DNA of 64,000 bases from contig JAFIEP010000100.1 in the NCBI GenBank assembly GCA_020832495.1, positions 1 to 64,000 of the forward strand, read 5' to 3'. Both the position numbers and the translations under genes were made by a program. Positions 12,420-24,756 of this stretch are shown here, piece by piece. The notes beneath the pieces were generated by a model, which saw only the letters and a list, made by a program, of their open reading frames with translations, did not search any database and was not told the DNA's origin. Each line of letters begins with the position of its first letter. Positions within the stretch are counted from its first letter, which is position 1. Source of the DNA: Acidimicrobiia bacterium. GTDB lineage: Bacteria > Actinomycetota > Acidimicrobiia > Acidimicrobiales > Acidimicrobilacustridaceae.

Positions 12420-12494
12420 GCGCCTCTAGCTCAACGGCAGAGTACCGGACTTTTAATCCGAGGGGTCTGGGTTCGAATCCCAGGGGGCGCACCA
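12420..12494 (+). tRNA. tRNA-Lys (TTT), integration site of the island
   Basis: The acceptor stem gcgcctc pairs with ggggcgc, followed by discriminator A and encoded CCA (12492-12494). The T-arm is ctggg-ttcgaat-cccag. The anticodon loop is cttttaa with TTT at 12452-12454. The first anticodon-stem pair (C-A) is mismatched. Its 3' half, from C12450, is duplicated perfectly at 24711-24756. Confidence 0.95.
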
Positions 12495-12495
12495 G
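12450..12495 (+). other. attL: 46-bp direct repeat within tRNA-Lys
   Basis: The segment from anticodon-loop nucleotide 32 to one base past CCA is repeated without mismatch at 24711-24756. Beyond it a further 20 or so bases are related (CTCAGCAGGGTTGC versus GTCAGCGGGGTTGC). The integrase gene starts 100 bp to the right, as expected for an element integrated into a tRNA 3' end. Confidence 0.93.
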
Positions 12496-12595
12496 CTCAG
12501 CAGGGTTGCTGCAACAAGCGACTTCCCTATAGGGCCAACTCGTAGGCCAACTCACGGCACTGCTTCCTGTCACACCCGACCAGGAGGATCGTGCT

Positions 12596-13759
12596 GTGAG
12601 AGGTTCCATGCGAGAGAAGAAGCCCGGCGTCTGGCAGCTACGCGTCTACTGCGGGCGGAACACCGCAGGCCGCCAAGTGATGCGTCATCGCACCGTCCGA
12701 GGCGGACGACGGACCGCCGAGTCGGCGCTGGCCACGTTCGTCGCCGAAGTCGAAGCCCAACACCGGGCCGTCCCCGAAGGCACCCTCGAGCACCTCCTCG
12801 AACGGTGGCTCGACCTGGTCGACCGCGACCGATCACCCACCACCGCCGCCGAGTACCGGCGGCTCGCCGACAAGCGCGTCATCCCAGCGCTCGGCGCCAA
12901 GCGCCTCCACCGCCTGGGCCCAGCCGACCTCGACGCCTTCTACACCGCCCTCACGGATGAGGGACTGTCGCCCAGCTCGGTGCGCCGCGTCCACGCACTC
13001 ATCTCGAGGGCTTGCGCCCAGGCCGTCAAGTGGGGCTGGATGGCCACCAACCCCGCAGCGAGGGCATCGCCGCCGGTCGTGCGGCCACCCGAACGCGACG
13101 CACCAGACCTCGACGCGGCGCTCACTGTGTTCGCCGCCGCCGACAAGCTGCATCCCGAGCTCGCAGGCCTGTGGCGACTCGCCGCAGCGTCCGGCCTCCG
13201 CCGAGGCGAACTTGCTGGGCTCCGCTGGTCCGACATCAACGGCCAGGAACTGCGGGTGCGACGGTCCATCGCCGTCGTCAAGGGCGAGATCATCGAGAAG
13301 GAACCGAAGACCAGGCAAGGCCGCCGGCTCCTACTGCCCGACGCTGCCGCCCAGCTCGTCGCCGCCCGCAAAACGTGGCAGAAGGAGGTCGCCGCCGAGC
13401 TCGACGTCGTGCTCCCAGACGACCCGTGGCTCTGGTCCCTCCGCGTCGAAGCCAACCGGCCACCCAACCCCAGCAGCCTCACCGAAGCATGGAACCGAGC
13501 CCGGGACGCCACCAAGGTCGAAGGCTTCCGCCTTCACGACCTCCGCCACCTCCAAGCCACCATCCTCATCGACGCCGGCATCCCCCTCCCCGTCGTCTCC
13601 CAACGACTCGGACACGCCAACCTCACCACCACCGCCAACATCTACACCCACGCCGTCGCCGCCCGCGACTCCGAAGCCGCCGACATCGCCGGCGGCGCGT
13701 TCTTCGACGAGGACAAAGGCGAGGACGGCAACGGGGACCAGGACGACGACGACCGGTAG
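12596..13759 (+). CDS. int: Tyrosine-type site-specific integrase
   Basis: This recombinase inserts and excises the island at tRNA-Lys by cutting through a covalent phosphotyrosine. It is 387 aa: an N-terminal arm-binding domain, a SAM-like core-binding domain (about residues 60-155) and a catalytic domain. The catalytic set is present: Arg in SGLRRGEL (202/203), Lys in the KTRQGRR loop, HDLR (His314, Arg317), GH (His340) and Tyr350 in IYTHA. GTG 12596 follows AGGAGG by 8 nt. The C-terminal tail is very acidic (DQDDDDR). It lies 101 bp inside the tRNA and reads into the island. It resembles phage and AICE integrases of Actinobacteria, and nothing suggests it is inactive. Confidence 0.95.
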   Translation: MRGSMREKKPGVWQLRVYCGRNTAGRQVMRHRTVRGGRRTAESALATFVAEVEAQHRAVPEGTLEHLLERWLDLVDRDRSPTTAAEYRRLADKRVIPALGAKRLHRLGPADLDAFYTALTDEGLSPSSVRRVHALISRACAQAVKWGWMATNPAARASPPVVRPPERDAPDLDAALTVFAAADKLHPELAGLWRLAAASGLRRGELAGLRWSDINGQELRVRRSIAVVKGEIIEKEPKTRQGRRLLLPDAAAQLVAARKTWQKEVAAELDVVLPDDPWLWSLRVEANRPPNPSSLTEAWNRARDATKVEGFRLHDLRHLQATILIDAGIPLPVVSQRLGHANLTTTANIYTHAVAARDSEAADIAGGAFFDEDKGEDGNGDQDDDDR

Positions 13760-13853
13760 GCACACACCTCCCACCCCCAGCCCAGGTCAGCGGCCGCGAG
13801 TGCACATCTCGGTTCACATGCCCGGCGGTGTCGAAGCAGTGACCACAGAGCGA

Positions 13854-14954
13854 CTACAGGTCGAGCTTGAGGTCACGGAGCGGAACCATCAGCTCAGGTC
13901 TTGGCACCCGCAGCGAATGGCCAGGACGACGCTCGACGTTGCCCTGCACGAGCAACGACTCACGATCAGCGAACCATTGCAGTGCCTCCTCAAGCCTCGC
14001 TGGAGGAATGTCGACCTCTACCTCGCACTCGCGCCCAGAGCGTACGGTCTGAAGCCGAAACGACGCCTGAGGCTCCCGCCTCATCTGGACGATGTAGCCA
14101 GTAAGGCGCTCCGCTTTCGAGCGTCGATGGGTGCGCAGTTTCTTCGCAGTTAGGTCCAGCAACTCCTCGGCTTCGGACGGGAACTGCATCTCGCTCGGGA
14201 GTCTGTTGCCACCTTCGAGCCCGGCAGCCCACTCGAACTGCACACCAAGTGAGACTTCGTGTTTCAGGAGATTCCGGATGGCGACGACTGTCTCGCGGGC
14301 CACGCCGGCCACCACCATGGCCGAAACGTCGCCGGCGGCGGGCTCCCGGGCAGGTCCAATCACTCGCTGCTGTATGGAATCGAGAGCTTGCGCCATCGTC
14401 CTCGTCGCACGACGCTCCTCGGGCTCGACGTAGGCAGCGGTGCCGTCCAGCGATTCTTGCCTGTCGTCCGGGTCCTCGTCGGCCGGCTCGACTGGCATCA
14501 GGATCGGGATCACGTAGGAGCCGGGCCTTGTGTGGCCCATGCGCGCCTTCCTAGTGATCCGATCGCCCACGGCGGAGTACTGGTAGCCAAGTTGGGCCCT
14601 AGGTGTGCGTGAGGTTGTGGCGCTCGTTCGCAAGATCGATCGTGCAGAAGTCACCAGAGTGATCCCCTGCTCCAAAGCGATGGAGCCAGAGGCACCGCCG
14701 ACAGCCCTCATCTCGGTCATGTCGACGAGCCAGTTCTCGAGCCTCTGCTGTAGCGTCGCTGGATCCACCCCATCGGCTACAGCGGCTCGTTCGATCAAGC
14801 CGCTCCATTCGAAGCTATTTCGGTCCACGCCGTAGGGAATCCGGAGGATGGCGTCGCCCTTCTTCCACACGGCCCCCCGGGATCCCATCCGATCGCGTTT
14901 CCACCCTACGTCCTTGATGAACCTGAGGAGCCTCTCGTGATCGGTGTGCTCCAC
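13854..14954 (-). CDS. Unknown protein with HicA-like N-terminal region, partner of the DUF4365 gene
   Basis: The protein is 366 aa. Its start is best placed at GTG 14954, which shares one base with the TAG stop of the upstream DUF4365 gene and has GAGGAG 5 nt before it, so the two are translationally coupled. Residues 8-60 (LLRFIKDVGWKRDRMGSRGA, ILRIPYG, WSGLIERAA) follow the pattern of HicA-type dsRBD-like folds: Gly-Trp, GS-x, a beta strand with IP, then a helix. The position of the HicA histidine is Arg here. The rest is helical and charged, with an Ala/Val-rich middle (AMVVAGVARETVVAIRNLL) and a C-terminal strand region, and was not recognised. By context it is cargo of the island and a possible RNA- or DNA-binding effector or regulator of a defence pair. 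Confidence 0.65.
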   Translation of the reverse strand: MEHTDHERLLRFIKDVGWKRDRMGSRGAVWKKGDAILRIPYGVDRNSFEWSGLIERAAVADGVDPATLQQRLENWLVDMTEMRAVGGASGSIALEQGITLVTSARSILRTSATTSRTPRAQLGYQYSAVGDRITRKARMGHTRPGSYVIPILMPVEPADEDPDDRQESLDGTAAYVEPEERRATRTMAQALDSIQQRVIGPAREPAAGDVSAMVVAGVARETVVAIRNLLKHEVSLGVQFEWAAGLEGGNRLPSEMQFPSEAEELLDLTAKKLRTHRRSKAERLTGYIVQMRREPQASFRLQTVRSGRECEVEVDIPPARLEEALQWFADRESLLVQGNVERRPGHSLRVPRPELMVPLRDLKLDL

Positions 14955-15460
14955 TAGTTCTCCTCGATGTCTGTGAGCCACTCCGCGAACGTTTCGATGG
15001 TGAAGGTACTGGAGCGCCTTACCTCAACCCGATCGGGAACTGCTGTTGGGTCGATGCGCGTCCAGTATGCGGTCGCTGTGTGACGCGTTGATTCCCGATG
15101 GTGGCGAACCCAGCCTTCACAGTCGTCGTCCCACAGCTTCACCACGACGAAGTAGACGGGGTAGTGCGATGCCGACCACGCCTGCCGCCAGTGGGGCGTG
15201 ACCGTCCATCCGAGCGTGCACTTCCTCACAGTGAACGCACTCGACGTGCATTTCACCTGCACGCGCACCTCGACACCCGGAAAGCCGACGTTGCAGTCGT
15301 ACGCGGCCTGGTCCTCATCTGCTGACACCTCGGTCAGCCGGTAGCCCGCTTGGGCGCATAGTGCCCGCACATACGCGACACCGAAACGCGCCTTCCGCTG
15401 GTTGGGTAGCAAGTCCCCGAACACGACGGGGGCAGGTGGTGTCCCGCCTTGGTCGCTCAT
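14954..15460 (-). CDS. DUF4365-like PD-(D/E)XK nuclease-fold protein
   Basis: The 168-aa protein has the plan of DUF4365: a helical start (RKARFGVAYVRALCAQAGYR), Asp55 in AAYDCNVGF, then a beta strand VRVQVKCTSS. Together these give D-x12-QxK (Gln68, Lys70), the reduced PD-(D/E)XK nuclease signature. DUF4365 proteins are often found in defence islands, alone or beside regulators or effectors. The C-terminal half (YPVYFVVVKLWDDDCEGW) is consistent with the remaining strands. It is the first gene of a two-gene leftward operon with the HicA-like protein. The ATG lies about 220 bp left of the next cargo gene. Nuclease activity is inferred only. Confidence 0.75.
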   Translation of the reverse strand: MSDQGGTPPAPVVFGDLLPNQRKARFGVAYVRALCAQAGYRLTEVSADEDQAAYDCNVGFPGVEVRVQVKCTSSAFTVRKCTLGWTVTPHWRQAWSASHYPVYFVVVKLWDDDCEGWVRHHRESTRHTATAYWTRIDPTAVPDRVEVRRSSTFTIETFAEWLTDIEEN

Positions 15461-15581
15461 GGGCGCTTCAGGCTAGCCGATCGGGTTCCCGGTCACCGAT
15501 GGTTCGGCGCCTGATCGATGGTCCGACAGGGCCAGCGCCCCGACGCAGCCAGTCGCCAGGCCGGCCTCCACCGCCGCCGTC

Positions 15582-15622
15582 GGTAGCCGGTGGAACCCGG
15601 AGTCGAACGACTCTCCCACCGG
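15582..15622. repeat. Hairpin element, copy 1, left of the 98-aa gene
   Basis: Starts GGTAGCCGGTGG. It folds as a nested hairpin: outer CCGGTGG (15587-15593) with CCACCGG (15616-15622), inner GAGTC-gaac-GACTC (15600-15613). A related copy starts at 15979. The two copies bracket the small gene at 15687-15983. Confidence 0.6.
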
Positions 15623-15686
15623 ACCCCCCTCTGAGAGCAGCGCAGGGACCCCACGGATTGCCAGGGCACTCGATACTATGGAATGC

Positions 15687-15983
15687 ATGGAAACACTGCC
15701 AGCAGTCGACAAGGGCTTCTTCTCGGGCCGCATCGTCGGTGAGTACCTCGATTGGCCCGCCGATTCCCCTCGGGTCCGGTATTGGCTCTACGAGGACGAT
15801 TCCACGACAGGCCTCGATCTTGGAGTACTCGACGCGGACGAGGTCTTCGATCCAGCGCCAGTTCTGGAGGCGTGGGCGGAAGCCAGCGACATGACTGCGT
15901 GGTGGCTCGGCCGTGACACCAGGTGGGAGTTCCTCATCCGGCCAACGTGGATCGAAGGCTGGCCTCCTGCCCGCACGGGGTAG
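15687..15983 (+). CDS. Small unknown acidic protein, 98 aa
   Basis: The translation is compact and protein-like (FFSGRIVGEYLDWPADS, RYWLYEDDSTTGLDLGVLD, MTAWWLGRDTRWEFLIRPTW), rich in Trp and Asp, with no membrane segment. I recognise no family. TACTAT at 15674-15679 stands 7 nt before ATG 15687, fitting a leaderless start; ATG 15678 is the other candidate. The stop codon falls inside the second copy of the flanking hairpin repeat, so the gene ends in the repeat. A longer frame on the opposite strand covers the same DNA but looks like a shadow. The gene is cargo of the island. Confidence 0.55.
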   Translation: METLPAVDKGFFSGRIVGEYLDWPADSPRVRYWLYEDDSTTGLDLGVLDADEVFDPAPVLEAWAEASDMTAWWLGRDTRWEFLIRPTWIEGWPPARTG

Positions 15984-16014
15984 CCGGTGGGCGCCGAAGT
16001 CGAACGGCTCCCCC
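15979..16014. repeat. Hairpin element, copy 2, right of the 98-aa gene
   Basis: Shares GGTAGCCGGTGG, AGTCGAACG and CTC in the same order and spacing as the element at 15582, 397 bp away. The hairpin is less perfect, because the right outer arm is not preserved. The TAG stop of the 98-aa gene is its third to fifth bases. Confidence 0.55.
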
Positions 16015-16036
16015 GTCTGCCCAGCATCTGACCCTG

Positions 16037-16273
16037 CTACGGCCAGGCGACCCCCACCTCCTCGTCGTGAACGACCCCACCGGGAGCGAGGTCGCCCCGC
16101 TCGAGGTGATCGGCTACCTCGGTGAGGGCCTCGACGTACCCAGCGGTCCACTCGGGCGGGCGGCGCGGGTACTGCTCGTTCTCTACCGCCCAGGAACGCA
16201 GCCACGCGGCGATGACGGCATGGTTGGATCGGATCTCATCGGGTGCCATGGCCATGGCCACCATCGTGGCCAC
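16037..16273 (-). CDS. Small unknown helical protein, up to 78 aa
   Basis: The translation after the Met-rich start (MAPDEIRSNHAVIAAWLRSW, PPEWTAGYVEALTEVADHLE) looks like a soluble two- or three-helix protein. I recognise no family. Several ATG codons lie within the first eight codons and no ribosome site decides between them; the start may be nearer MAPDEI. It is transcribed towards the 98-aa gene. Island cargo, function unknown. Confidence 0.5.
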   Translation of the reverse strand: MATMVAMAMAPDEIRSNHAVIAAWLRSWAVENEQYPRRPPEWTAGYVEALTEVADHLERGDLAPGGVVHDEEVGVAWP

Positions 16274-16376
16274 CGCCCGATCACCGTGGTGGCGCTGGCC
16301 ACCGTGAGTGATCCCACTCTGGGCACGCCAGCTCGACCGGCCGCGTCACCGCACAGCGGGTTGTGCTAGCACTCCT

Positions 16377-17357
16377 GTGGTGCCGCCATCGCTGTCCAAC
16401 TGGGTGTACGAGAAGACCCTCTACATCAGGTTCCGTCGACGCGTTCGTTCGGTTCTACACACAGGACCAACCGCTGAAGTGGGCCCGCACGCCACAGCCG
16501 AGCTCTGCCTGCGTCGTGCACTGACGCTCCAGCGTGAGGCACGACGCACCTCGCTACTGCGCCAGAGAGAGGCCCTCGCTTCGGTCTGTCGCTCCACCAT
16601 CGAGGCAACACTGATCGGCCTCTACTCGCTGGAAGCCGACCCCGACGACGTGTCGCTTCGCGTCGCTCGCGGTGCAGTCAAATCGGCATCCCGCCTATCG
16701 AAGCCGTGGCTCGGCGAGGTAGACGATCCGATCCTTGGTCTCTGGGAGTCGCTGGGCCTGCCTGACTCACGGGGAATGCCCAACCTGTCCCAGATCGCTG
16801 ACCGGGTCGACGCCGTCGGGGATCCACCGGTCGGACGTCTTCTCTACTGGGAGTTCTACGTTCCGCTGTGCGAGACGGCTGTACACACCACCGGGGCCTC
16901 TCTCGCCCGCTACCGATCAGTCGGGAGCAACGCCCTGCGCCGACGTCCGCTCGGCGCGATCCCGAGACAGGGTCTCGTTCGAGCCGCCGACGGCTGCACG
17001 GCACTCCTGGCCGGACATCTCGCCGAGGCGCGTGGCATCCCATCGGCCTGGTTCCTCGCCTACGGCCATCGGCAGCTCAAGCGGGCGAACCGGCCGTACC
17101 CGATCCTCCTACTCACCTTCACCCTGTCCAGCATCCCGTGGTTGCTCAGCAACCTCAGGCAGCTGCCAGCCTGGGCCCGGGCTGTCGTCCGGGTGCTTGC
17201 AAATCGGCGGATGCGGCCTCCGCAGGACGACGAGCGTGCAGTCTCCACCATCGACGACCTCGCGGCGATAGGCCTCAGCCGACCTTCAGCCGAGTTTCTC
17301 TACTCAGTGTGGACAGAAGCCCAGGCCTCGCTCCGGGACCGCAGCACACTGCCATGA
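16377..17357 (+). CDS. Unknown island protein, 326 aa
   Basis: A mostly helical protein with an Arg-rich first third (YIRFRRRVRSVLHTG), a helical segment LASVCRSTIEATLIGLYSLE, and a hydrophobic stretch YPILLLTFTLSSIPWLLSN near residue 255 that could be one membrane segment. The first helices recall DUF5677-type proteins, but not enough to name it. The start is uncertain: GTG 16377 and GTG 16380 sit about where the coding character begins, and an upstream ATG at 16308 is in frame. Hairpin repeat A follows its stop codon. No partner gene is evident. Confidence 0.6.
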   Translation: MVPPSLSNWVYEKTLYIRFRRRVRSVLHTGPTAEVGPHATAELCLRRALTLQREARRTSLLRQREALASVCRSTIEATLIGLYSLEADPDDVSLRVARGAVKSASRLSKPWLGEVDDPILGLWESLGLPDSRGMPNLSQIADRVDAVGDPPVGRLLYWEFYVPLCETAVHTTGASLARYRSVGSNALRRRPLGAIPRQGLVRAADGCTALLAGHLAEARGIPSAWFLAYGHRQLKRANRPYPILLLTFTLSSIPWLLSNLRQLPAWARAVVRVLANRRMRPPQDDERAVSTIDDLAAIGLSRPSAEFLYSVWTEAQASLRDRSTLP

Positions 17358-17382
17358 CAACGGCACTGGCCCCCTCGGTGAA

Positions 17383-17424
17383 GGTTGGGTGGTGGCGGGG
17401 CGGGATACCGCCGACCACCCAACC
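17383..17424. repeat. Island hairpin repeat, copy A
   Basis: Left arm GGTTGGGTGGTGGCGG, right arm its complement with one bulged base, loop about 9 nt (contains GGCGGGATA). It starts 26 bp after the stop of the 326-aa gene, so it could end that transcript. Copies B (17987) and C (18715) share the arms. Confidence 0.8.
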
Positions 17425-17510
17425 AGCCGCACGCTTGCCGGCTAAGGTGCTGCCCACAAGCGAGCCCAAGCAGCCACCCTCGGCTCTAGGCCAATCGATG
17501 GGAGATGACC

Positions 17511-17963
17511 ATGACCGATGACGAGTTCGCAGTGGAGCTGCACCCGGGAGACGAAGCCGAGGCCACAGCACTGCTGGAATGGGCCCAAGCCGAAGGGGTT
17601 CCGCTCGAACCGCACCGCGACGTCGCTGCGCTGCTTCCCCTCGTCCCTGTGATCGGCGGCATCCTCACCGCCGCTGCGGTCGCCACCCTGATGGATTGGC
17701 TTCTGGCGAAGGATGAGTGCCGTCAAGCCGTCGACTTCCGTGGAGACGAAATCAAGTTCGTCACGAACTGCGACATCAAGGACGGCAAGGTCTTCGTCAT
17801 CGCGAACGAGGGGCAACAGGTGACCATCCACGACGTTCCGCCCCTCCTCGACATCACCGCCGTCGCCAAACAGGCTGTCACCGAGGGCGCCGCCGCAGCG
17901 AAGGCAGCGATCGAAGCCGCAGGTGGCAAGGCTGACGTCGAGGCCCGCCCTGACGCCAAGTAG
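17511..17963 (+). CDS. Unknown island protein with one membrane segment, 150 aa
   Basis: Residues 40-65 (LLPLVPVIGGILTAAAVATL) form a likely transmembrane helix, followed by KDECRQAVDFRGDEIKFVTN and a beta-rich region, then an Ala/Lys-rich helix (EGAAAAKAAIEAAGG). ATG 17511 is chosen because GGGAG lies 6 nt upstream; ATG 17505 is in frame but overlaps it. No family recognised. The gene is bracketed by hairpin repeats A and B, 604 bp apart. Confidence 0.6.
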   Translation: MTDDEFAVELHPGDEAEATALLEWAQAEGVPLEPHRDVAALLPLVPVIGGILTAAAVATLMDWLLAKDECRQAVDFRGDEIKFVTNCDIKDGKVFVIANEGQQVTIHDVPPLLDITAVAKQAVTEGAAAAKAAIEAAGGKADVEARPDAK

Positions 17964-17986
17964 GTAGGCCAGGCCGCAACTCCTGA

Positions 17987-18027
17987 GGTTGGGTGGTGGC
18001 GGGGCGGGATGCCGCCACCACCCAACC
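17987..18027. repeat. Island hairpin repeat, copy B
   Basis: Perfect 16-bp arms (GGTTGGGTGGTGGCGG and complement) around a 9-nt loop. It lies between two converging genes (stop 17963, stop 18050), so a two-way terminator role is likely. Confidence 0.85.
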
Positions 18028-18049
18028 AGCCGAAAAGCGTAGCCAACGG

Positions 18050-18559
18050 CTACGTGCCCAACGTCAGCTCGACGAACCAGTCGTCGGCCTCGAGTTCGGT
18101 GCGGCTCATCACCATGGAGCCGCGGCTTCCGATCTCGATGTCGTAGAAGTCGACGTCCTGGACCTCGACAGCGAAGACGAGCGTGCACACCACGTTGGGA
18201 GCGATGTCATCGCCGTCTTGCAGGTCCGGGTGATCAAGCTCACCGACCGAGACGGTACGACCGGACCCAACGATGCTCCCATCGCCGTCCCGGACCGACA
18301 CCCGCACGCCCGGAGCGAAGTCCGAGTAGCCGCGCTCACCTCTGCACGTGTCGCCCGTACGCACGATCCCACCAGGAGAGAACAGCGTGTAGGTGCCTCG
18401 GATCTCCAACGGGTCGCCCGGCTGCACCGCCTGGTACACGCCGAAGCCGACCCCAGCGATCGCTAGGACCACCACAAATCCGATCAGGACGTACCCGGCC
18501 TGCCGGCCCTTCGACGGCTGCGCCGGACTCGGCGCCCCATCAGGGATCTCGTCACTCAT
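18050..18559 (-). CDS. Unknown membrane-anchored protein, 169 aa
   Basis: A cytoplasmic Pro-rich start is followed by a single membrane helix (AGYVLIGFVVVLAIAGVGFGVY, about residues 22-43) and a beta-rich outside domain with two cysteines (DTCRGERGYSDF and NVVCTLVFAVEV) that could pair. This layout is common for small actinobacterial surface proteins. No family is recognised. The start is ATG 18559, which follows GGGCGAG; a TTG one codon earlier is possible. It converges on the 150-aa gene across hairpin repeat B. Confidence 0.65.
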   Translation of the reverse strand: MSDEIPDGAPSPAQPSKGRQAGYVLIGFVVVLAIAGVGFGVYQAVQPGDPLEIRGTYTLFSPGGIVRTGDTCRGERGYSDFAPGVRVSVRDGDGSIVGSGRTVSVGELDHPDLQDGDDIAPNVVCTLVFAVEVQDVDFYDIEIGSRGSMVMSRTELEADDWFVELTLGT

Positions 18560-18714
18560 CAACTCGCCCTTTCATCCGCCCGAGTAGCCATCGACCATAG
18601 CCCCTCCAACAAGGGTGCGGCGGGGCCTGACCTCCGTCGGGACCTTCGATCACGCGTCAGCCCGTGGACGCGAAGCGGCCTCACCAGCGCGCCTGACTGG
18701 CCACCGCAGGTGTA

Positions 18715-18757
18715 GTTGGGTGGCGGCGGATGGCGGAGATCCGCCACCAACCCAACC
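18715..18757. repeat. Island hairpin repeat, copy C (diverged)
   Basis: Outer arms TTGGGT and ACCCAA with an inner perfect stem TGGCGGA-ga-TCCGCCA. Related to copies A and B by GTTGGGTGG and the closing CCACCAACCCAACCAG. It sits in the 18560-18887 gap, which otherwise shows no gene. Confidence 0.65.
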
Positions 18758-18887
18758 AGACGCACACCTACCCAGCGCTCGAGATCCCATGCAGTCGGCG
18801 AACTGGCCCACGGACGCGGGTGTGGCCCCCACCCGAAGGCAGGGGCCACGCGAGGGATCGGTTGGGCCGCGCGGTAGATCGCGCAGG

Positions 18888-19313
18888 TCAGGCGTTGACC
18901 AGGTCGCCGGTGAGTCGCCAGACGTTGGTGCCGGTGGACACAGCGCGAGCACGGCCGTTGGGCGGGATCTGGGCGACCTTGCCGGCCACCACATGCACTG
19001 CGGCGGCTGAACCACCGGCCACGATCGTGCACGGCGTGGAACTGGTGTTGATGATGTCGAGGTCGAGGATCGGCACTGGCAGGCCGGTGCGCCCGGCGAG
19101 AGTGAGTGTGCAGTTGTTGGCCTGCACGTCGATCAATCGGCCCTGGTGTCCGGTGTCGAGGTTCGTGTCAACGGTGAACGAGGTGGAGGTGACTGCGAGA
19201 CGGTGACGGGCCATGGCCAGCGCGGTCCCGGTCGCTGAGCCCCACCGGATGCGGTTCGGTCCAGTTGCCCACAGCCGGATGCCCGGATGGTCCGACCCGT
19301 CGCCGAGGAGCAC
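18888..19313 (-). pseudogene. Phage-structural-like fragment (C-terminal part)
   Basis: The frame reads as a beta-rich protein with phage-tail character (VLLGDGSDHPGIRLWATG, FTVDTNLDTGHQGRLIDVQ, LDLDIINTSSTPCTIVAGG, VAQIPPNGRARAV). Possible starts are GTG 19313 and an ATG near MARHRLAVTS. Upstream, the same frame loses protein character where the excisionase-like sequence ends, so this looks like the back part of a larger gene joined to other DNA. It could still be expressed as a 141-aa protein. I call it a remnant with modest confidence and cannot name the original virion protein. Confidence 0.45.
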
Positions 19314-19324
19314 CGACCCGCCGG

Positions 19325-19426
19325 CGCATTCAACGCCTGATACAGCGTCGACCGAGGAACGCCCATCATCTCGGCCGCCTCGTCCACTGACAGGGTGCCG
19401 GGCATGCCATCTGGCAGCGTGATCAC
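19325..19426 (-). pseudogene. Truncated excisionase-like helix-turn-helix gene
   Basis: Starting at GTG 19426, which overlaps the XRE stop codon (GTGA), the frame reads GTLSVDEAAEMMGVPRSTLYQALN, the classic MerR/excisionase-type HTH. Where the wing (Gly-x-x-Pro-x-x-x-Ile-Gly-Arg) should follow, it instead runs into Arg/Ser/Pro-rich nonsense (open to 19133), which is the other frame of the phage-like fragment. So only the first helices remain. Coupling to the XRE repressor gene suggests it was the island's directionality factor. Confidence 0.6.
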
Positions 19427-19644
19427 GACGCCTGCCCCTCAGGCTGGACAGCCACCAGCACCACAACCGGAACCGCCAGCGCCTCGGCGAGCTTCGTTGC
19501 GGTAGCTGGACGAACCTTCACATGGCCGGCCGCCTCGATCTCACTGATCCGGCCTTGCGACATGCCGGTGAGCTTCGAGAGGGCCGACTGCGAGAGTCCC
19601 GAGCGCTCCCGGAGCGCTGCCAGGGCGGAGCCGTTGATGAGCAT
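19423..19644 (-). CDS. XRE-family repressor, 73 aa
   Basis: A compact lambda-repressor-like HTH: SALAALRERSGLSQSALSKL then GMSQGRISEIEAAGHVKVRP, followed by AEALAVPVVVLVAV. Only the DNA-binding domain is present. ATG 19644 is chosen because a perfect promoter (TTGACA, 17 nt, TACAGT) ends 7 nt upstream, making the mRNA leaderless. The promoter contains ACCGAT/ATCGGT boxes, so the gene very likely represses itself and the divergent genes from 19810. It is followed by the truncated excisionase via a GTGA overlap. Confidence 0.8.
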   Translation of the reverse strand: MLINGSALAALRERSGLSQSALSKLTGMSQGRISEIEAAGHVKVRPATATKLAEALAVPVVVLVAVQPEGQAS

Positions 19645-19651
19645 GCGAAGC

Positions 19652-19680
19652 ACTGTACCGATGACTACCGATAGTGTCAA
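19652..19680 (-). promoter_or_regulatory. Sigma-70-type promoter of the island XRE repressor
   Basis: On the minus strand TTGACA (19680-19675), a 17-nt spacer and TACAGT (19657-19652) are followed after 7 nt by ATG 19644. The spacer contains CTATCGGTAGTCATCGGT, two overlapping candidate operator halves. Confidence 0.8.
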
Positions 19681-19786
19681 CGCTACTTTGCGATACCCAC
19701 CGATAGGGGGTCTGACCTGCGGAACTACATCGCTGTCAGGAAAATCACAGGTCTGTCGTATCGCTCATCATCGGTAGCTATCGCCA
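19656..19786. promoter_or_regulatory. Operator cluster between the divergent XRE genes
   Basis: The octamer-like box ACCGATAG/CTATCGGT recurs: TACCGATGACTACCGATAG at about 19656-19674, CCACCGATAGGG at about 19698, and CATCGGTAGCTATCGCC at about 19769-19785. The copies vary by one or two bases. Their place between two XRE genes makes them probable repressor sites. Confidence 0.6.
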
Positions 19787-19809
19787 AGTATCTGTGAGAA
19801 TCTCAAGGA

Positions 19810-20187
19810 GTGCTCTCCCCCAAGGAACTCGGCCAGATCGTCAAGACCCGACGCACCGAACTGGGCTTCACCCAGCGCAAGGTCGTAGACCGCGTTGCAG
19901 ACCAACTCGGCACCGAGGCCATCAGCGAACCCACCTACCGGGCCGTCGAAACAGGCCGCACTAATGCCTCGGCACTCACCCTCTCCGCCGTCAGCCGCGC
20001 CCTGGACTGGCCACCGGATGCCCTCGAGCGCATTCGGGACGGAGCTCCACCCCCGAATGCTGCAGATGCTGCCAGCGCTGGCGACGAGATCCAGATCGCC
20101 GCCCTCGCCGGCAACCTCACCCCAGAGAACCGGGCCAAACTCGAAGGGTACGCTCGAGCCCTCCTCGACGATCAGGAGCGACCATGA
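19810..20187 (+). CDS. XRE-family transcriptional regulator, 125 aa
   Basis: The N-terminal HTH is ELGQIVKTRRTELGFTQRKV ... EPTYRAVETGRTNASALTLS, followed by an Ala-rich linker and a helical tail (LTPENRAKLEGYARALLDD). That tail resembles the start of the next protein (QLTPENSAKVVKYSRHIL), suggesting partner or shared binding regions. GTG 19810 is the likely start, but AAGGA is too close to act as a ribosome site, so it may be leaderless. It stands first in a rightward operon with a membrane protein and, after a gap, an ImmA/IrrE protease; this ImmR/ImmA-like arrangement controls ICEBs1-type elements. Confidence 0.8.
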   Translation: MLSPKELGQIVKTRRTELGFTQRKVVDRVADQLGTEAISEPTYRAVETGRTNASALTLSAVSRALDWPPDALERIRDGAPPPNAADAASAGDEIQIAALAGNLTPENRAKLEGYARALLDDQERP

Positions 20188-20528
20188 CAGATGGCGAGGA
20201 CTGGGATGACTTGGCGGAGACCATGGGGCAGCTGACGCCTGAGAACAGCGCCAAGGTCGTGAAGTACAGTCGTCACATCCTCCGCAGTCAGAGCCGCCAC
20301 GGAATGCTGCAAAGACTTGCGGAGTGGTTCCAGGACACGGTGCACCTGAAATGGAGAGTGAGTGGGGGCTACTGGCTGGTCGCAGCGTTCTTCACGACTC
20401 TCGGTGCTTTCCTATCGTTTAGCTGGGACCAAAGCGAGGAGGGTTGGCAGTTTTCGCTTGCGCTCTTTGCCGCATGCCTATTGCTCATCCAGTTCATGAT
20501 CTGGATTGACGGCAAGTCACAGGCCTGA
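20184..20528 (+). CDS. Unknown protein with two membrane helices, 114 aa
   Basis: The ATG overlaps the stop of the XRE gene (ATGA), so translation is coupled. Residues 1-40 are acidic and helical with the LTPEN motif shared with the XRE tail. Two hydrophobic helices follow (GYWLVAAFFTTLGAFLSF and FSLALFAACLLLIQFMIW). The coding DNA is less GC-rich than its neighbours, fitting horizontal origin. Function is unknown. It may hold the regulator at the membrane or sense stress, which is speculation. Confidence 0.7.
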   Translation: MTDGEDWDDLAETMGQLTPENSAKVVKYSRHILRSQSRHGMLQRLAEWFQDTVHLKWRVSGGYWLVAAFFTTLGAFLSFSWDQSEEGWQFSLALFAACLLLIQFMIWIDGKSQA

Positions 20529-20561
20529 AACTCGTCACAGTCCCCGGGCATCGTTCCGGCC

Positions 20562-20990
20562 ATGGCTTGGAACCCGTGGCGAGCACTCCGCAACCGAGAC
20601 CACATCCACCTCCACCGGCACCCCTCAGCCCACCTCGCCGGCGGCGCCTACCACGCCACCAACGGCCCCAACACCATCATCGTCCTCTCACCCGACCTCG
20701 ACCGACGCCACCGCAACGCCGCCCTCGCCCACGAACTCATCCACGACGAACGAGGCGTCCACGACCCAGCCGATGCGCCACCTGCGTGGAGTGCCGTCGT
20801 CGCACGAGAGGAGCGCCACGTCGACCGGGAGGTTGCCCGCCGGCTCGTTCCTCCGAGCGAGTTGCAGGCCGCTGTGGCACGATGGACCTCCATGGGAGAG
20901 GCGGTGACGGCCCAGCTCGTGGCCGACGAGTTCGACGTACCTGAGGCGGTTGCCTCGGTTGCCCTCGCCGAACTCCGCCGCGTTGCCTAG
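20562..20990 (+). CDS. ImmA/IrrE-family metallopeptidase
   Basis: The motif AALAHELIHDERG contains HExxH (His-Glu-Leu-Ile-His), the zinc site of the ImmA/IrrE family. The second region (VAREERHVDREVARRLV) supplies the usual third-ligand helix. ImmA cleaves the XRE-type repressor ImmR to trigger ICEBs1 excision, and IrrE/DdrO is the Deinococcus version. At 142 aa it is short, a stand-alone protease domain followed by a small helical domain (EAVTAQLVADEFDVPEAVAS). It lies 33 bp after the membrane-protein gene, probably in the same operon. Its likely target is one of the two nearby XRE proteins. Confidence 0.85.
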   Translation: MAWNPWRALRNRDHIHLHRHPSAHLAGGAYHATNGPNTIIVLSPDLDRRHRNAALAHELIHDERGVHDPADAPPAWSAVVAREERHVDREVARRLVPPSELQAAVARWTSMGEAVTAQLVADEFDVPEAVASVALAELRRVA

Positions 20991-21078
20991 CCAATCTTGC
21001 GCGAGCCGTTGGTAGCGCTGAACCGGCCGAGGACTTCGCCTGCGACGGCCCAGCACGACGGGCAACCGAGATCAGGCC

Positions 21079-21429
21079 CTAGCTTCCGCCATCTGCTCTG
21101 TCTCGTGCACGATGGCGAACTGTCAGGTATGCGAGGGCTGCCGCCCCGACGGTGATCAATGCAGCGATGATGTTCGTCACATCGCTGATCGACGATCCAA
21201 CGTCGGTACGTAGGAGCAGGAGCAACGCAAGGATGAACGCAAAGGTCACGGATAGCATGCACACGACGCAGATGAACAGATCGACCCGCCTCGCGTGCAC
21301 GTCAAACGGGAGTTCCAGCGGTTCGGTCAGGCCAAGAGCCTCCTCGGACGACACCTGGTCGCCGTCGGTGGGTTCGACCTTGGATTCGTTCTCTCCTACG
21401 GTCTCGGTCGGCGCAAGAAACTCGGTCAT
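21079..21429 (-). CDS. Unknown protein with two membrane helices, 116 aa
   Basis: The N-terminal 45 residues are acidic and polar (TETVGENESKVEPTDGDQVS). Two membrane helices follow (LFICVVCMLSVTFAFILALL and VTNIIAALITVGAAALAYL), ending in a basic tail RHRARDRADGGS. The start ATG 21429 has AAAGAGGAG 4-5 nt upstream, the clearest ribosome site in this part of the island. It follows the RHH gene by 38 bp and is probably in the same leftward operon. No family recognised; the size and layout would suit an immunity or small effector protein, without proof. Confidence 0.65.
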   Translation of the reverse strand: MTEFLAPTETVGENESKVEPTDGDQVSSEEALGLTEPLELPFDVHARRVDLFICVVCMLSVTFAFILALLLLLRTDVGSSISDVTNIIAALITVGAAALAYLTVRHRARDRADGGS

Positions 21430-21467
21430 GGTCTCCTCTTTCTGGACGGAGAGGACCATCGAGCCGA

Positions 21468-21674
21468 CTAACGGAATACGACCTCGCGGTAGAGATTGGA
21501 GTCGGGTGTGAAGAGCAGAAGCTTGTCTCCATCTGCCCGCGCTTCCCGGAGATACTTCTCGGTCGAGATGGATCGGCGCACCATTTCGGTCACGGTGACT
21601 CCGTCCTCCTTGGCCATGGCTTCAAGCGCCGCTGCAACCTCATCGCCGAGGTTCAGGTTTAGGCGCTTGGGCAC
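21468..21674 (-). CDS. Ribbon-helix-helix (CopG/Arc-like) protein, 68 aa
   Basis: KRLNLNLGDEVAAALEAMAKEDGVTVTEMVRRSISTEK is a standard RHH fold: an N-terminal beta strand and two helices with the G-x-T/S-x-T-E turn. Such proteins bind operators as dimers and often act as antitoxins or plasmid/ICE copy regulators. The C-terminal extension (LLLFTPDSNLYREVVFR) could bind a partner. The start GTG 21674 overlaps the end of the upstream small gene. No recognisable toxin lies beside it; its operon partner is the membrane protein at 21079. Confidence 0.75.
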   Translation of the reverse strand: MPKRLNLNLGDEVAAALEAMAKEDGVTVTEMVRRSISTEKYLREARADGDKLLLFTPDSNLYREVVFR

Positions 21675-21934
21675 ACTCCACTCCTTGCGATCGCGTTCTC
21701 GGCTACTCGACTGCGCTGGTCCTCCTTGGTGTTGGTGGGCGGTGAATGGGAGCCTCCGTCAGTAGTTGCCGCCCCGGTCGGGGCAACGCCCCGCGTCGGG
21801 TCGGCAAGATCGACACGGCGGAAAGCAGCCATGTCGGGTCCGTCGTGTCCGGCGGGTACCGGCGTCGGCTCAGGCCCGGCCTGCTCGCCTGCGCTGACCA
21901 GCGCAGAAGCAGTCGTGTCCTGTACGAGGTTCAT
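21659..21934 (-). CDS. Small Pro/Ala-rich unknown protein, 91 aa
   Basis: ATG 21934 stands 9 nt after AAAGGAG (ATG 21940 stands 3 nt after it). The protein is low in hydrophobic residues and looks disordered (GPEPTPVPAGHDGPD, APTGAATTDGGSHSPP). Its first residues MNLVQDTTASALVSAGEQAG resemble short actinobacterial leader- or precursor-type peptides, but no class is assigned. It is the first gene of the leftward three-gene operon and overlaps the RHH gene by 16 bp. A good promoter lies upstream. Confidence 0.55.
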   Translation of the reverse strand: MNLVQDTTASALVSAGEQAGPEPTPVPAGHDGPDMAAFRRVDLADPTRGVAPTGAATTDGGSHSPPTNTKEDQRSRVAENAIARSGVCPSA

Positions 21935-21973
21935 GAGCATTCGCTCCTTTGGTGTTGGGTAGGGTCGATGTGT

Positions 21974-22002
21974 ACGATAGCTGTGCGATCGCTGGCCCAC
22001 AA
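21974..22002 (-). promoter_or_regulatory. Promoter of the leftward RHH operon
   Basis: Minus strand TTGTGG (22002-21997), 17-nt spacer, TATCGT (21979-21974), followed about 40 nt later by AAAGGAG and ATG 21934. Confidence 0.6.
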
Positions 22003-22122
22003 CGGGTCCTGGAGAATTTCTTCTCGCCCACAGCCCGATCTCAGGCTTCAGGACAACCGAGACGGCGCCATTCCGACCGTGTGTCACGCCGACAGCAGTC
22101 GGAGTAGGTAGGTTCAGGAGCT

Positions 22123-23784
22123 GTGGGAGCAGCGCAGGTCGACACCGCCGAGTTGAGGAAGGCCCGGGGGGCGTTCTTCACGCCGCCCGAGCTGTGTTCG
22201 TACGTCGCCCGCTGGGCCATCCGAACAGGAGTCGACCGGATCCTTGAGCCGTCGTGCGGTGACGCTGCGTTCCTGACCGCCGCCGGCGCTCAGGTTCGGG
22301 CGCTCGGTGCGCCGGCAACCACTTCGACAGCGCTGGTCAGCATCGACCAGGTGCACGGCGTGGAGCTCCACGAGGCGTCAGCGAAGGAAGCCGCCCTCAC
22401 ACTCGCCAAGGCCGGAGTGCAGGCCACGATCCTGACTGGCGACTTCTTCGACCTCGACCCCACACCGTCGTTCGACGCTGTAGTCGGCAATCCCCCCTAC
22501 ATCCGCTACCAAGACTTCACCGGCGAAGCCCGAGCCAAAGCCCAGAGGAGAGCCCTCGAAGCCGGACGCCCCATGAGTGGGCTGGCCAGCTCCTGGGCGC
22601 CGTTCCTCCTCCACGCCAGCCGCTTCCTAGCTCCCGGCGGGCGCCTCGGTCTCGTGTTGCCGGCCGAACTGCTCTCGGTGAACTACGCCGCGCCCATCAG
22701 GGCCCACCTGATGGAGAACTTCGATCACGTCGAGATCGTCCTGTTCGACGATCGAGTGTTCCCAGGCGTCACCGAAGAGATCGTGCTCCTCCTCGCCGAA
22801 GGCCCTGGAGGCCACACCGACCGGTTCACGATCCGCCAGTTCAACGACCTCGCTCAGCTCGATGAGCCACCACCGCCACAACACTCGTGGGCGCCACCCA
22901 ACGCTGCAGGAAAGTGGGTGCCGGCGCTGCTCGACGAGTCCGCCGGCCGCACCTACGCCGAACTGCTCGAGAGCAGCTTCTCACCCCTCTCCACCTGGGG
23001 CCACGCGTACCTAGGGATGGTCACCGGCAACAACAAGTACTTCACGCTCACCACCGACGAGGTCGCTGCCCGAGGGCTCAACGAACGAGACCTCACCAAA
23101 GTATCCCCACCCGGCTCTCGCCACCTGAGAGGAGCGACATTCACCGAACGGGCATGGAGGGAACTCAACGGCAACGACGCCCGAACATGGCTGTTCTACC
23201 CCCGCGGCGATGACCTCAGCGACGCAGCCGCCGAGTACATCCGCTACGGCGAAGAACACGACGTCCACACCGCCTACAAGTGTCGAGTGAGGTCACCGTG
23301 GTGGCGCGTCCCGATGCTGCCCGTCGCCGACCTCCTCCTCACCTACATGAACCACGACACGCCACGCCTGGTCCGCAACGCTGCCCGGGTAGTGCACCTC
23401 AACTCGATCCACGGCGTGCGCCTCCACCGTGGCCACCGCACCATCGGGCGAGAGCTACTCCCGATCGCAGCGCTCAACTCAATGACCATGCTCGGCGCTG
23501 AGATGGAAGGCAGAGCGTACGGCGGCGGCATCCTCAAGCTGGAACCGAAGGAAGCCGAGCTGCTCCCTCTCCCCAGCCCGGCACTGCTGTCACAGATCGA
23601 CGTGTCGCTGCGGGCGGTCGCTCCGCAGCTCGGAGCCGCGATGCGCGGCGGAGAGCTGGACGCAGCGGTCGACCTCGTCGACCGGGTGGTCCTCGTCGAA
23701 GGCGCCGGCCTGAAACGGACGGCAGTCCGACAGCTGCGGGCCGCCCGCGTCGCGATGTTCAACCGCCGCTCAGCGAGGCACTGA
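22123..23784 (+). CDS. N6-adenine DNA methyltransferase (type II R-M modification enzyme)
   Basis: This 553-aa gamma-class N6-adenine methyltransferase has motif X ARGAFFTPPELC (residues 14-25), the SAM-binding motif I EPSCGDAAF (42-50), motif IV NPPYIRYQ (123-130) and the family's LGLVLPAELLSVNYA segment. The C-terminal 300 residues form the target-recognition part, ending in a helical region. Such enzymes protect host DNA by methylating adenine in the sequence cut by a partner nuclease. The stop codon and the next ATG are one base apart (TGAGATG), coupling it to the REase-like gene. GTG 22123 is the start, with AGGAG very close. The recognition sequence cannot be read from the protein. Confidence 0.9.
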   Translation: MGAAQVDTAELRKARGAFFTPPELCSYVARWAIRTGVDRILEPSCGDAAFLTAAGAQVRALGAPATTSTALVSIDQVHGVELHEASAKEAALTLAKAGVQATILTGDFFDLDPTPSFDAVVGNPPYIRYQDFTGEARAKAQRRALEAGRPMSGLASSWAPFLLHASRFLAPGGRLGLVLPAELLSVNYAAPIRAHLMENFDHVEIVLFDDRVFPGVTEEIVLLLAEGPGGHTDRFTIRQFNDLAQLDEPPPPQHSWAPPNAAGKWVPALLDESAGRTYAELLESSFSPLSTWGHAYLGMVTGNNKYFTLTTDEVAARGLNERDLTKVSPPGSRHLRGATFTERAWRELNGNDARTWLFYPRGDDLSDAAAEYIRYGEEHDVHTAYKCRVRSPWWRVPMLPVADLLLTYMNHDTPRLVRNAARVVHLNSIHGVRLHRGHRTIGRELLPIAALNSMTMLGAEMEGRAYGGGILKLEPKEAELLPLPSPALLSQIDVSLRAVAPQLGAAMRGGELDAAVDLVDRVVLVEGAGLKRTAVRQLRAARVAMFNRRSARH

Positions 23785-23785
23785 G

Positions 23786-24520
23786 ATGGCTCACATCGAC
23801 GACCTGCTCGACGCAGCGCTGCGAGCCCTCCCCCCGAAGCCCGCAGACACCGTCCCCGCCCCGCAGAAGAAGCGGTACTCGGAGCAGGTGTCCAACGCCG
23901 TCGCCCCGGCCTTCGCACAGGAGCTACGCGACCGCGGCCTGGACGGATCCAGGCCGGCCCCGCCCGGCGTGATCGGGCAGTCCGGCGCCGAACGCCGGAT
24001 GGCCGGAGCCATCGGAGCGAAGAAGGTCGACGTCACCTGGGCCACCGAGGAGTCCGGACTCCTGTTAGCGGTCTCGGTGAAGACGATCAACTTTCGGGAC
24101 AAGCGCAGCGGCAACTTCCAGAAGAACCTCACGAACCGGCGCAGCGATCTCCTCTACGAGGCCGTGACCCTGCACCGCCGATTCCCCTACAGCGTGCTCG
24201 CCGGATTCCTATTCCTCGACAAAGGAGCAGCGGCCGACGGGACACCCCAGCGACGATCGACGTTCCTGAATGCGCATCACCGGCTCAAGCTCTTCGACGG
24301 CCGGAACGACCCAGCCGGGCGAGATGAACAGTACGAGCGCCTCTACATTGTCCTCCTCGATGCCAACCCCTTCACCCCGAACTGGGAGACCTACCGCGTA
24401 GGTGACCCAGACACGCCCATCGAGATGAGCACCGCCTTCGATGAGTTCATCGCCCTGATCGCCGAGCGGAACCCCGACTTCTACGACTGTGTAGACGGCA
24501 AACTCAGGAAGGTCACCTGA
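23786..24520 (+). CDS. Probable type II restriction endonuclease
   Basis: This 244-aa gene immediately follows the methyltransferase, the usual R-M layout. Its core fits a PD-(D/E)XK nuclease: Asp82 in KKVDVTW, then the strand LLLAVSVKTINF with Ser97 and Lys99, and a helix NLTNRRSDLLYEAV carrying Glu125. Ser in place of the middle acid, with the acid supplied later, is known from Cfr10I, NgoMIV and Bse634I, so the site could be active. I do not recognise a named restriction family. The protein is basic around the presumed site. Function rests on context plus this motif. Confidence 0.72.
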   Translation: MAHIDDLLDAALRALPPKPADTVPAPQKKRYSEQVSNAVAPAFAQELRDRGLDGSRPAPPGVIGQSGAERRMAGAIGAKKVDVTWATEESGLLLAVSVKTINFRDKRSGNFQKNLTNRRSDLLYEAVTLHRRFPYSVLAGFLFLDKGAAADGTPQRRSTFLNAHHRLKLFDGRNDPAGRDEQYERLYIVLLDANPFTPNWETYRVGDPDTPIEMSTAFDEFIALIAERNPDFYDCVDGKLRKVT

Positions 24521-24710
24521 CCGCGGTGCCCAAGCGGGAACCGCGCTTCCGGCGAGGCATCCAAGCGCCGCTGAGTCCATCCGGCGGGCCAACATTTGGG
24601 CCAACAACCACACTGACCGGCCCGGAACGTACGAGACTGGCCGGACCGGAACCCTTGCTACTGTAGGGTTTTCCGGACAGGCAGACAGCGTCGGGACCCC
24701 CTCCAGTGTT

Positions 24711-24756
24711 CTTTTAATCCGAGGGGTCTGGGTTCGAATCCCAGGGGGCGCACCAG
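24711..24756 (+). other. attR: partial tRNA-Lys copy at the right end of the island
   Basis: A perfect 46-bp copy of the 3' half of tRNA-Lys (12450-12495). The 5' half is absent; the preceding bases (ctccagtgtt) are unrelated to a tRNA. The rest of 24521-24906 shows no supported gene. Confidence 0.93.

What the first reader, a model, noticed from the sequence alone, without database searches (positions are those of the whole stretch)
22123..24520. Restriction-modification pair with a Cfr10I-style SVK catalytic motif
The endonuclease-like partner has Asp82, Ser97-Val-Lys99 and a following helix with Glu125. Ser for Glu in the D/ExK motif is known from Cfr10I and NgoMIV, where a later Glu takes over. 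The surrounding sequence does not recall a named family, so specificity may be new.
Basis: partly seen in the sequence, partly recalled or inferred. Interest (0 to 1): 0.6.

Follow-up and report, generated by a model that had tools for sequence, protein, structure and literature searches.

The report
Restriction enzyme with relocated catalytic glutamate
A bacterial gene pair on a mobile island most likely protects the cell by methylating its own DNA at adenines and cutting unmethylated foreign DNA; the cutting enzyme belongs to an uncatalogued family in which one catalytic glutamate sits in two alternative places in different members.

Summary
In detail: MTase gene 22123-23784 and, one base later, a 244-aa ORF (23786-24520) with D82, S97-V-K99 and E125. 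The MTase is a gamma-class N6-adenine enzyme (M.Eco57I/M.BseCI/CamA-like). The partner has no Pfam, NCBIfam or direct PADLOC hit, but 38 homologues (57-77% identity, several phyla) all lie beside this MTase, with E69, D82, S97, K99 and E125 invariant. AlphaFold (pLDDT 88) plus structural alignment puts it with PD-(D/E)XK restriction enzymes (NucC, BbvCI, PspGI, BsaWI, NgoMIV, EcoRI), so the SVK/Glu-migration reading is supported. Strongest evidence: distant homologues beside N6/N4-type MTases carry canonical E-x-K at position 97 and Phe at 125. Across 64 readable distinct cores, S97 always goes with E/D125 (60) and E97 with F125 (4), a natural relocation of the carboxylate inside one family (seen as one clade). 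It works like Cfr10I/NgoMIV but is not shown to be a CCGG-family member: K-to-E spacing is 25, not 12-13, and R-(D/E)-R is not conserved. Specificity stays unknown; palindrome avoidance gave nothing consistent. The pair sits at the end of a 12.3-kb tRNA-Lys integrative island. Activity is inferred, not shown.

The parts
22123..23784 (+). N6-adenine DNA methyltransferase (gamma class, NPPY at residues 123-126), 553 aa, GTG start
   Evidence: Pfam M_Eco57I_C 6e-19, N6_Mtase 8e-15, Eco57I 1.5e-12; PADLOC MTase_II PDLC03301 542 bits over almost its full length; AF2 pLDDT 89.9, Foldseek M.BseCI 5e-20 and CamA 5e-20 over the whole chain
23786..24520 (+). Restriction endonuclease (inferred), 244 aa, PD-(D/E)XK fold with permuted site E69/D82/S97-x-K99/E125
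   Evidence: 38 homologues, all beside the MTase; invariant catalytic set; AF2 pLDDT 87.9, VIA-align matches to restriction enzymes
24029..24031 (+). D82 codon, metal-binding Asp (inferred)
   Evidence: invariant in every homologue in which it is covered
24074..24082 (+). S97-V98-K99 codons, half-motif lacking the acid
   Evidence: S and K invariant in 39/39; E-x-K in one distant clade
24125..24160 (+). N114-L-T-N-R118-R-S-D121-L-L-Y-E125: start of the helix after strand S-V-K; relocated catalytic Glu at 125, likely base-reading end (inferred)
   Evidence: N114-R119, D121 and E125 invariant; helix 112-132 in the model
12420..12494 (+). intact tRNA-Lys(ttt), integration site of the island
   Evidence: ARAGORN
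12450..12495 (+). att-like 46-bp direct repeat, copy 1 (inside the tRNA 3' half)
   Evidence: identical to 24711-24756
12596..13759 (+). tyrosine integrase of the island
   Evidence: Pfam Phage_integrase 3e-22
24711..24756 (+). att-like 46-bp direct repeat, copy 2, about 190 bp after the nuclease gene
   Evidence: exact repeat

Best explanation
A two-gene Type II restriction-modification system carried on a tRNA-Lys integrative island. The MTase methylates N6 of an adenine in a short, still unknown target and so protects the host. The 244-aa partner, probably a homodimer, cuts unmethylated DNA at the same target. Its PD-(D/E)XK active site is permuted: E69 and D82 bind metal, K99 on the next strand acts on the attacking water, and the carboxylate normally two residues before the Lys (here S97) is supplied by E125 from the following helix, as in Cfr10I/NgoMIV. 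The N-terminal end of that helix (N114-R119) probably reads bases. Shown: sequence, linkage, conservation, covariation, predicted fold. Inferred: activity, metal roles, oligomer, specificity.
For: MTase profiles and structure. Strict linkage in 38/38 loci, plus plasmid and viral-contig copies. Invariant E69/D82/S97/K99/E125. AF2 fold with restriction enzymes dominating structural matches (NucC Z 9.3, BbvCI 8.9, PspGI 8.2, BsaWI 8.0, NgoMIV 7.5, EcoRI 7.0). Covariation S97 with E/D125 (60 distinct cores) against E97 with F125 (4), no exception; the two classes are homologous (hhalign E 3.6e-12; the E-x-K protein finds this window at E 4e-7). Distant relatives also sit next to MTases: N6_N4 type, or C5 type with Vsr. 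Island: integrase plus 46-bp repeat.
Against: No Foldseek PDB match below E 0.001; VIA Z values of 7-9 are only moderately above the tool's stated background. Only one E-x-K clade is known, so the covariation may be a single event. Position 121 is acidic in both classes and could be a metal ligand instead of 125. No recognition-site avoidance signal. No biochemical data.
Confidence: 0.83

Rival explanations
1. The R-M system is real but the second metal-binding acid is D121 (one helical turn earlier), and E125 is structural; the Cfr10I analogy is then only approximate.
For: Position 121 is D or E in all readable cores of both classes; in BsaWI the acid used lies about one turn earlier than E201 of NgoMIV (PMC4652773).
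Against: An acid at 121 is kept in the canonical E-x-K clade too, so it cannot be what compensates for S97; only 125 switches with 97.
Confidence: 0.17
2. Partner is a PD-(D/E)XK nuclease that is not sequence-specific by itself, for example an effector nuclease like NucC held in check in another way, or a modification-dependent nuclease.
For: NucC is the top structural match (Z 9.3).
Against: NucC works with cyclic-nucleotide synthases (established knowledge), whereas this gene is paired 1:1 with an MTase in 38/38 loci; relatives pair with other MTase classes.
Confidence: 0.07
3. The partner is an inactive or non-nuclease protein (for example an MTase accessory protein) that kept the fold.
For: No acid two residues before the Lys in the half-motif.
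Against: All catalytic residues invariant across phyla; the E97/F125 alternative preserves the set of active-site groups.
Confidence: 0.04

Closest known systems
CCGG-family restriction enzymes (Cfr10I, Bse634I, NgoMIV, SgrAI, BsaWI, PspGI, AgeI, Kpn2I)
   Different: K-to-acid spacing 25 instead of 12-13, D-to-K spacing 16 instead of 21-53 residues; no conserved R-(D/E)R; no sequence match; cognate MTase is N6-adenine type
BbvCI subunits
   Same: Z 8.9 structural match; related to NgoMIV but keeps canonical E-V-K/E-C-K (PMC6326814), a cross-family parallel of the E97/S97 switch seen here
   Different: heteromeric, asymmetric target, no sequence similarity found
M.Eco57I / M.BseCI / CamA N6-adenine MTases
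   Same: Same domain layout over the full length
   Different: About 14% identity in structural alignment, so the target cannot be transferred
PADLOC REase_II family PDLC03558
   Same: Weak profile match in 11 of 39 homologues (best 2e-4) and in the 300-aa partner group
   Different: Below a confident level; the window protein itself does not match

Membership tests
Type II restriction-modification system | DNA methyltransferase gene | tested here: met
Type II restriction-modification system | separate endonuclease gene, adjacent and linked | tested here: met
   38/38 homologues adjacent to the MTase; nuclease nature by predicted fold and conservation
Type II restriction-modification system | cleavage at a target protected by the cognate methylation | not testable with these tools
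   needs purified protein and methylome
PD-(D/E)XK nuclease superfamily | core fold | tested here: met
   predicted model with element order helix-strand-strand-helix-strand; structural matches dominated by PD-(D/E)XK enzymes, although Foldseek itself gave none at E below 0.001
PD-(D/E)XK nuclease superfamily | Asp, second acid, Lys | tested here: met
   D82, E125 (relocated), K99 invariant; canonical E-x-K in one clade
CCGG-family restriction enzymes | permuted PD...K...(D/E) order | tested here: met
   D82...K99...E125
CCGG-family restriction enzymes | spacing PD-x21-53-K-x12-13-E (PMC4652773) | tested here: not met
   x16 and x25 here (residue numbers)
CCGG-family restriction enzymes | R-(D/E)R motif between K and E that reads CCGG | tested here: not met
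   invariant residues there are D105, N110-R119 and D121; R104 varies. Known members vary too (AgeI, PfoI)
CCGG-family restriction enzymes | target contains CCGG or CCNGG | not testable with these tools
   specificity unknown
NucC effector nucleases | operon with a cyclic-nucleotide synthase | tested here: not met
   the adjacent upstream gene is an MTase in all 38 loci
Gamma-class N6-adenine MTase | N-terminal catalytic domain with NPPY/F, C-terminal recognition domain | tested here: met
   NPPY/NPPF in 54/54 MTases aligned; whole-chain match to M.BseCI and CamA

The most novel reading that the evidence does not exclude
One sequence-recognisable restriction endonuclease family contains both the canonical D...E-x-K site and the permuted D...S-x-K...E site, giving a natural, traceable case of carboxylate relocation, while its members partner with N6-adenine, N6/N4-type and C5-cytosine MTases, so the nuclease scaffold has been re-used for different targets.
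Probability: 0.6. Interest if true: 0.6.

Novelty: new member of a known kind. Interest (0 to 1): 0.47.

Why it matters
Restriction enzyme genes are hard to find because they rarely resemble each other. This one defines a family missing from the public profile libraries checked, spread by islands and plasmids over several phyla. It contains both arrangements of a catalytic carboxylate, which so far have been compared mainly between different families (NgoMIV against BbvCI). That makes a textbook question, how an active-site residue can move in sequence while staying in place in space, testable by swapping two positions between homologues.

Tried and rejected
Literature search for a methylome of a carrier: none usable. 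Sequence search of solved structures with protein and profile: nothing for the nuclease. Viral structure library: no convincing match. Phage genomes: no nuclease homologue. R-(D/E)R reading of R104-D105-K106-R107 rejected because R104 is not conserved. Viral-contig scans with the E-x-K and C5-linked homologues found nothing.

Full report
OBSERVATION. Two ORFs lie at 22123-23784 (553 aa, GTG) and 23786-24520 (244 aa, ATG), one base apart on the + strand. The bare pattern is weak: D-x10-30-[ST][VIL]K-x10-30-E turns up in about 10% of shuffles of the same protein, so evidence must come from conservation and structure.

METHYLTRANSFERASE. Pfam M_Eco57I_C (6e-19), N6_Mtase (8e-15), Eco57I (1.5e-12); PADLOC MTase_II PDLC03301 at 542 bits over the whole chain. 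AF2 from 32 sequences gives pLDDT 89.9, and Foldseek matches M.BseCI and CamA over the full length (E about 5e-20, TM 0.67-0.74) and M.TaqI over the catalytic part. NPPY or NPPF occurs in 54/54 aligned MTases. That is a gamma-class N6-adenine MTase with its own recognition domain.

PARTNER, DISTRIBUTION. No Pfam, NCBIfam or PADLOC match for the protein itself. A scan of 84,980 species genomes gave 38 homologues at 57-77% identity from Actinomycetota, Alphaproteobacteria, Gammaproteobacteria, Planctomycetes, Bryobacterales and Polyangia; every one has the MTase directly upstream. Plasmid copies (Cryobacterium, Pseudonocardia, Bradyrhizobium, Mycobacterium; pair inspected) and four viral-contig copies exist; no phage record has one. 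The nuclease is generally more conserved than the MTase, extreme in L025 (61% against 37%). None of the sampled genomes of the window's own family has a copy, which with the island below points to recent gain.

ACTIVE SITE. In 39/39 sequences E69, D82, S97, K99, D121 and E125 are invariant, together with N110-R119 between K99 and E125. In the model (pLDDT 87.9, pTM 0.87) D82 precedes strand 83-87, S97-x-K99 lies in strand 91-101 and E125 in the following helix 112-132, the textbook layout of the permuted site. VIA-align rows are mostly PD-(D/E)XK enzymes: NucC 9.3, BbvCI 8.9, PspGI 8.2, BsaWI 8.0, NgoMIV 7.5, EcoRI 7.0, PfoI 7.0, AgeI 6.9, Bse634I 6.3, SgrAI 6.3. Foldseek alone gave nothing below E 0.001, so the fold claim rests on the family of matches and the motif layout, not on one hit; the tool warns that Z under 8 can be background. 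Model coordinates could not be measured, so side-chain distances are untested.

THE SWITCH. Profile searches brought in distant relatives. Most keep S-x-K and an acid at 125. Four (L200, L201, L202, L206) have canonical E-I/V-K at 97-99 and Phe at 125; the alignment there is anchored without gaps between N117-R118/D121 and H130/P134. Over 65 distinct cores: S97 with E125 54, S97 with D125 6, E97 with F125 4, one core not covered at 97, no exceptions; position 121 stays acidic in both classes. The classes are clearly homologous (hhalign E 3.6e-12, 28% identity over 156 columns; reverse HMM hits to S-x-K members 1e-11 to 1e-15). The three full-length E-x-K members form one clade, so one event is seen and its direction is open. 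This is what relocation of a catalytic carboxylate predicts, and it argues for E125 rather than D121 as the replacement of the missing acid. A parallel across families is published: NgoMIV-type enzymes with a small residue and an alternative Glu against the related BbvCI with E-V-K (PMC6326814); the engineered counterpart in Cfr10I is Skirgaila et al. 1998, cited in PMC6344858 and PMC1189080 but not readable here.

PARTNER CLASSES. The E-x-K members L200 and L201 sit right behind N6_N4_Mtase genes with SPPY; the more distant S-x-K members L203, L204 and L208 sit next to or close to, and L205 near, C5-cytosine MTases, two of them checked also with Vsr. Further, MTases 48-51% identical to the window's are paired on Rhizobium, Gordonia, Corynebacterium, Kocuria, Cnuibacter and Paraburkholderia plasmids with a 296-357-aa protein that has the same S-T-K...N-x-x-N-R...D pattern; their MTases fall among those of the 244-aa type, with weak support. 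One nuclease scaffold has thus been combined with several MTase classes.

MEMBERSHIP. For the CCGG family the literature gives PD-x21-53-K-x12-13-E plus R-(D/E)R (PMC4652773, PMC6344858). Order of residues: met. Spacing (16 and 25): not met. R-(D/E)R: not met. Target: untestable. So it works like Cfr10I/NgoMIV at the active site but is not filed there.

SPECIFICITY. Unknown. Hexamer-palindrome avoidance in nine carriers showed no consistent candidate, no carrier methylome was found in the literature, and REBASE was not available.

ISLAND. tRNA-Lys 12420-12494; an exact 46-bp repeat 12450-12495 = 24711-24756; a tyrosine integrase directly after the tRNA. The pair ends about 190 bp before the second repeat, so it is cargo of a 12.3-kb integrative island. 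In some other genomes various tRNA genes lie near the pair, in keeping with independent integration.

VERDICT. Function remains a prediction.

Noticed in passing
window 12420-24756: 12.3-kb integrative island at tRNA-Lys: tyrosine integrase at 12596-13759, 46-bp direct repeat at both ends, R-M pair as distal cargo.
   Followed up: partly
window 14954-15460 (-): DUF4365 domain protein (4.5e-10) overlapping an unmatched 375-aa ORF (13854-14981, -) in the same island; could be a second cargo module.
   Followed up: no
window 17382-17412 and 17986-18016: 31-nt direct repeat, 97% identical, G-rich, in the island, spacing 604; nature unknown.
   Followed up: no
L191 5128-6156, L192 5168-6055, L193 5137-6207, L194 4927-5835, L197 5132-6034, L198 5128-6147: Second, longer S-T-K nuclease-like partner (296-357 aa) of the same MTase family on plasmids, annotated as hypothetical protein.
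   Followed up: partly
L025: Nuclease 61% identical to the window's but MTase only 37%, suggesting MTase replacement.
   Followed up: no
L206 7352-7810 with flank: E-x-K homologue interrupted by a TGA stop, apparently a decaying R-M system with a partial N6_N4 MTase upstream.
   Followed up: no
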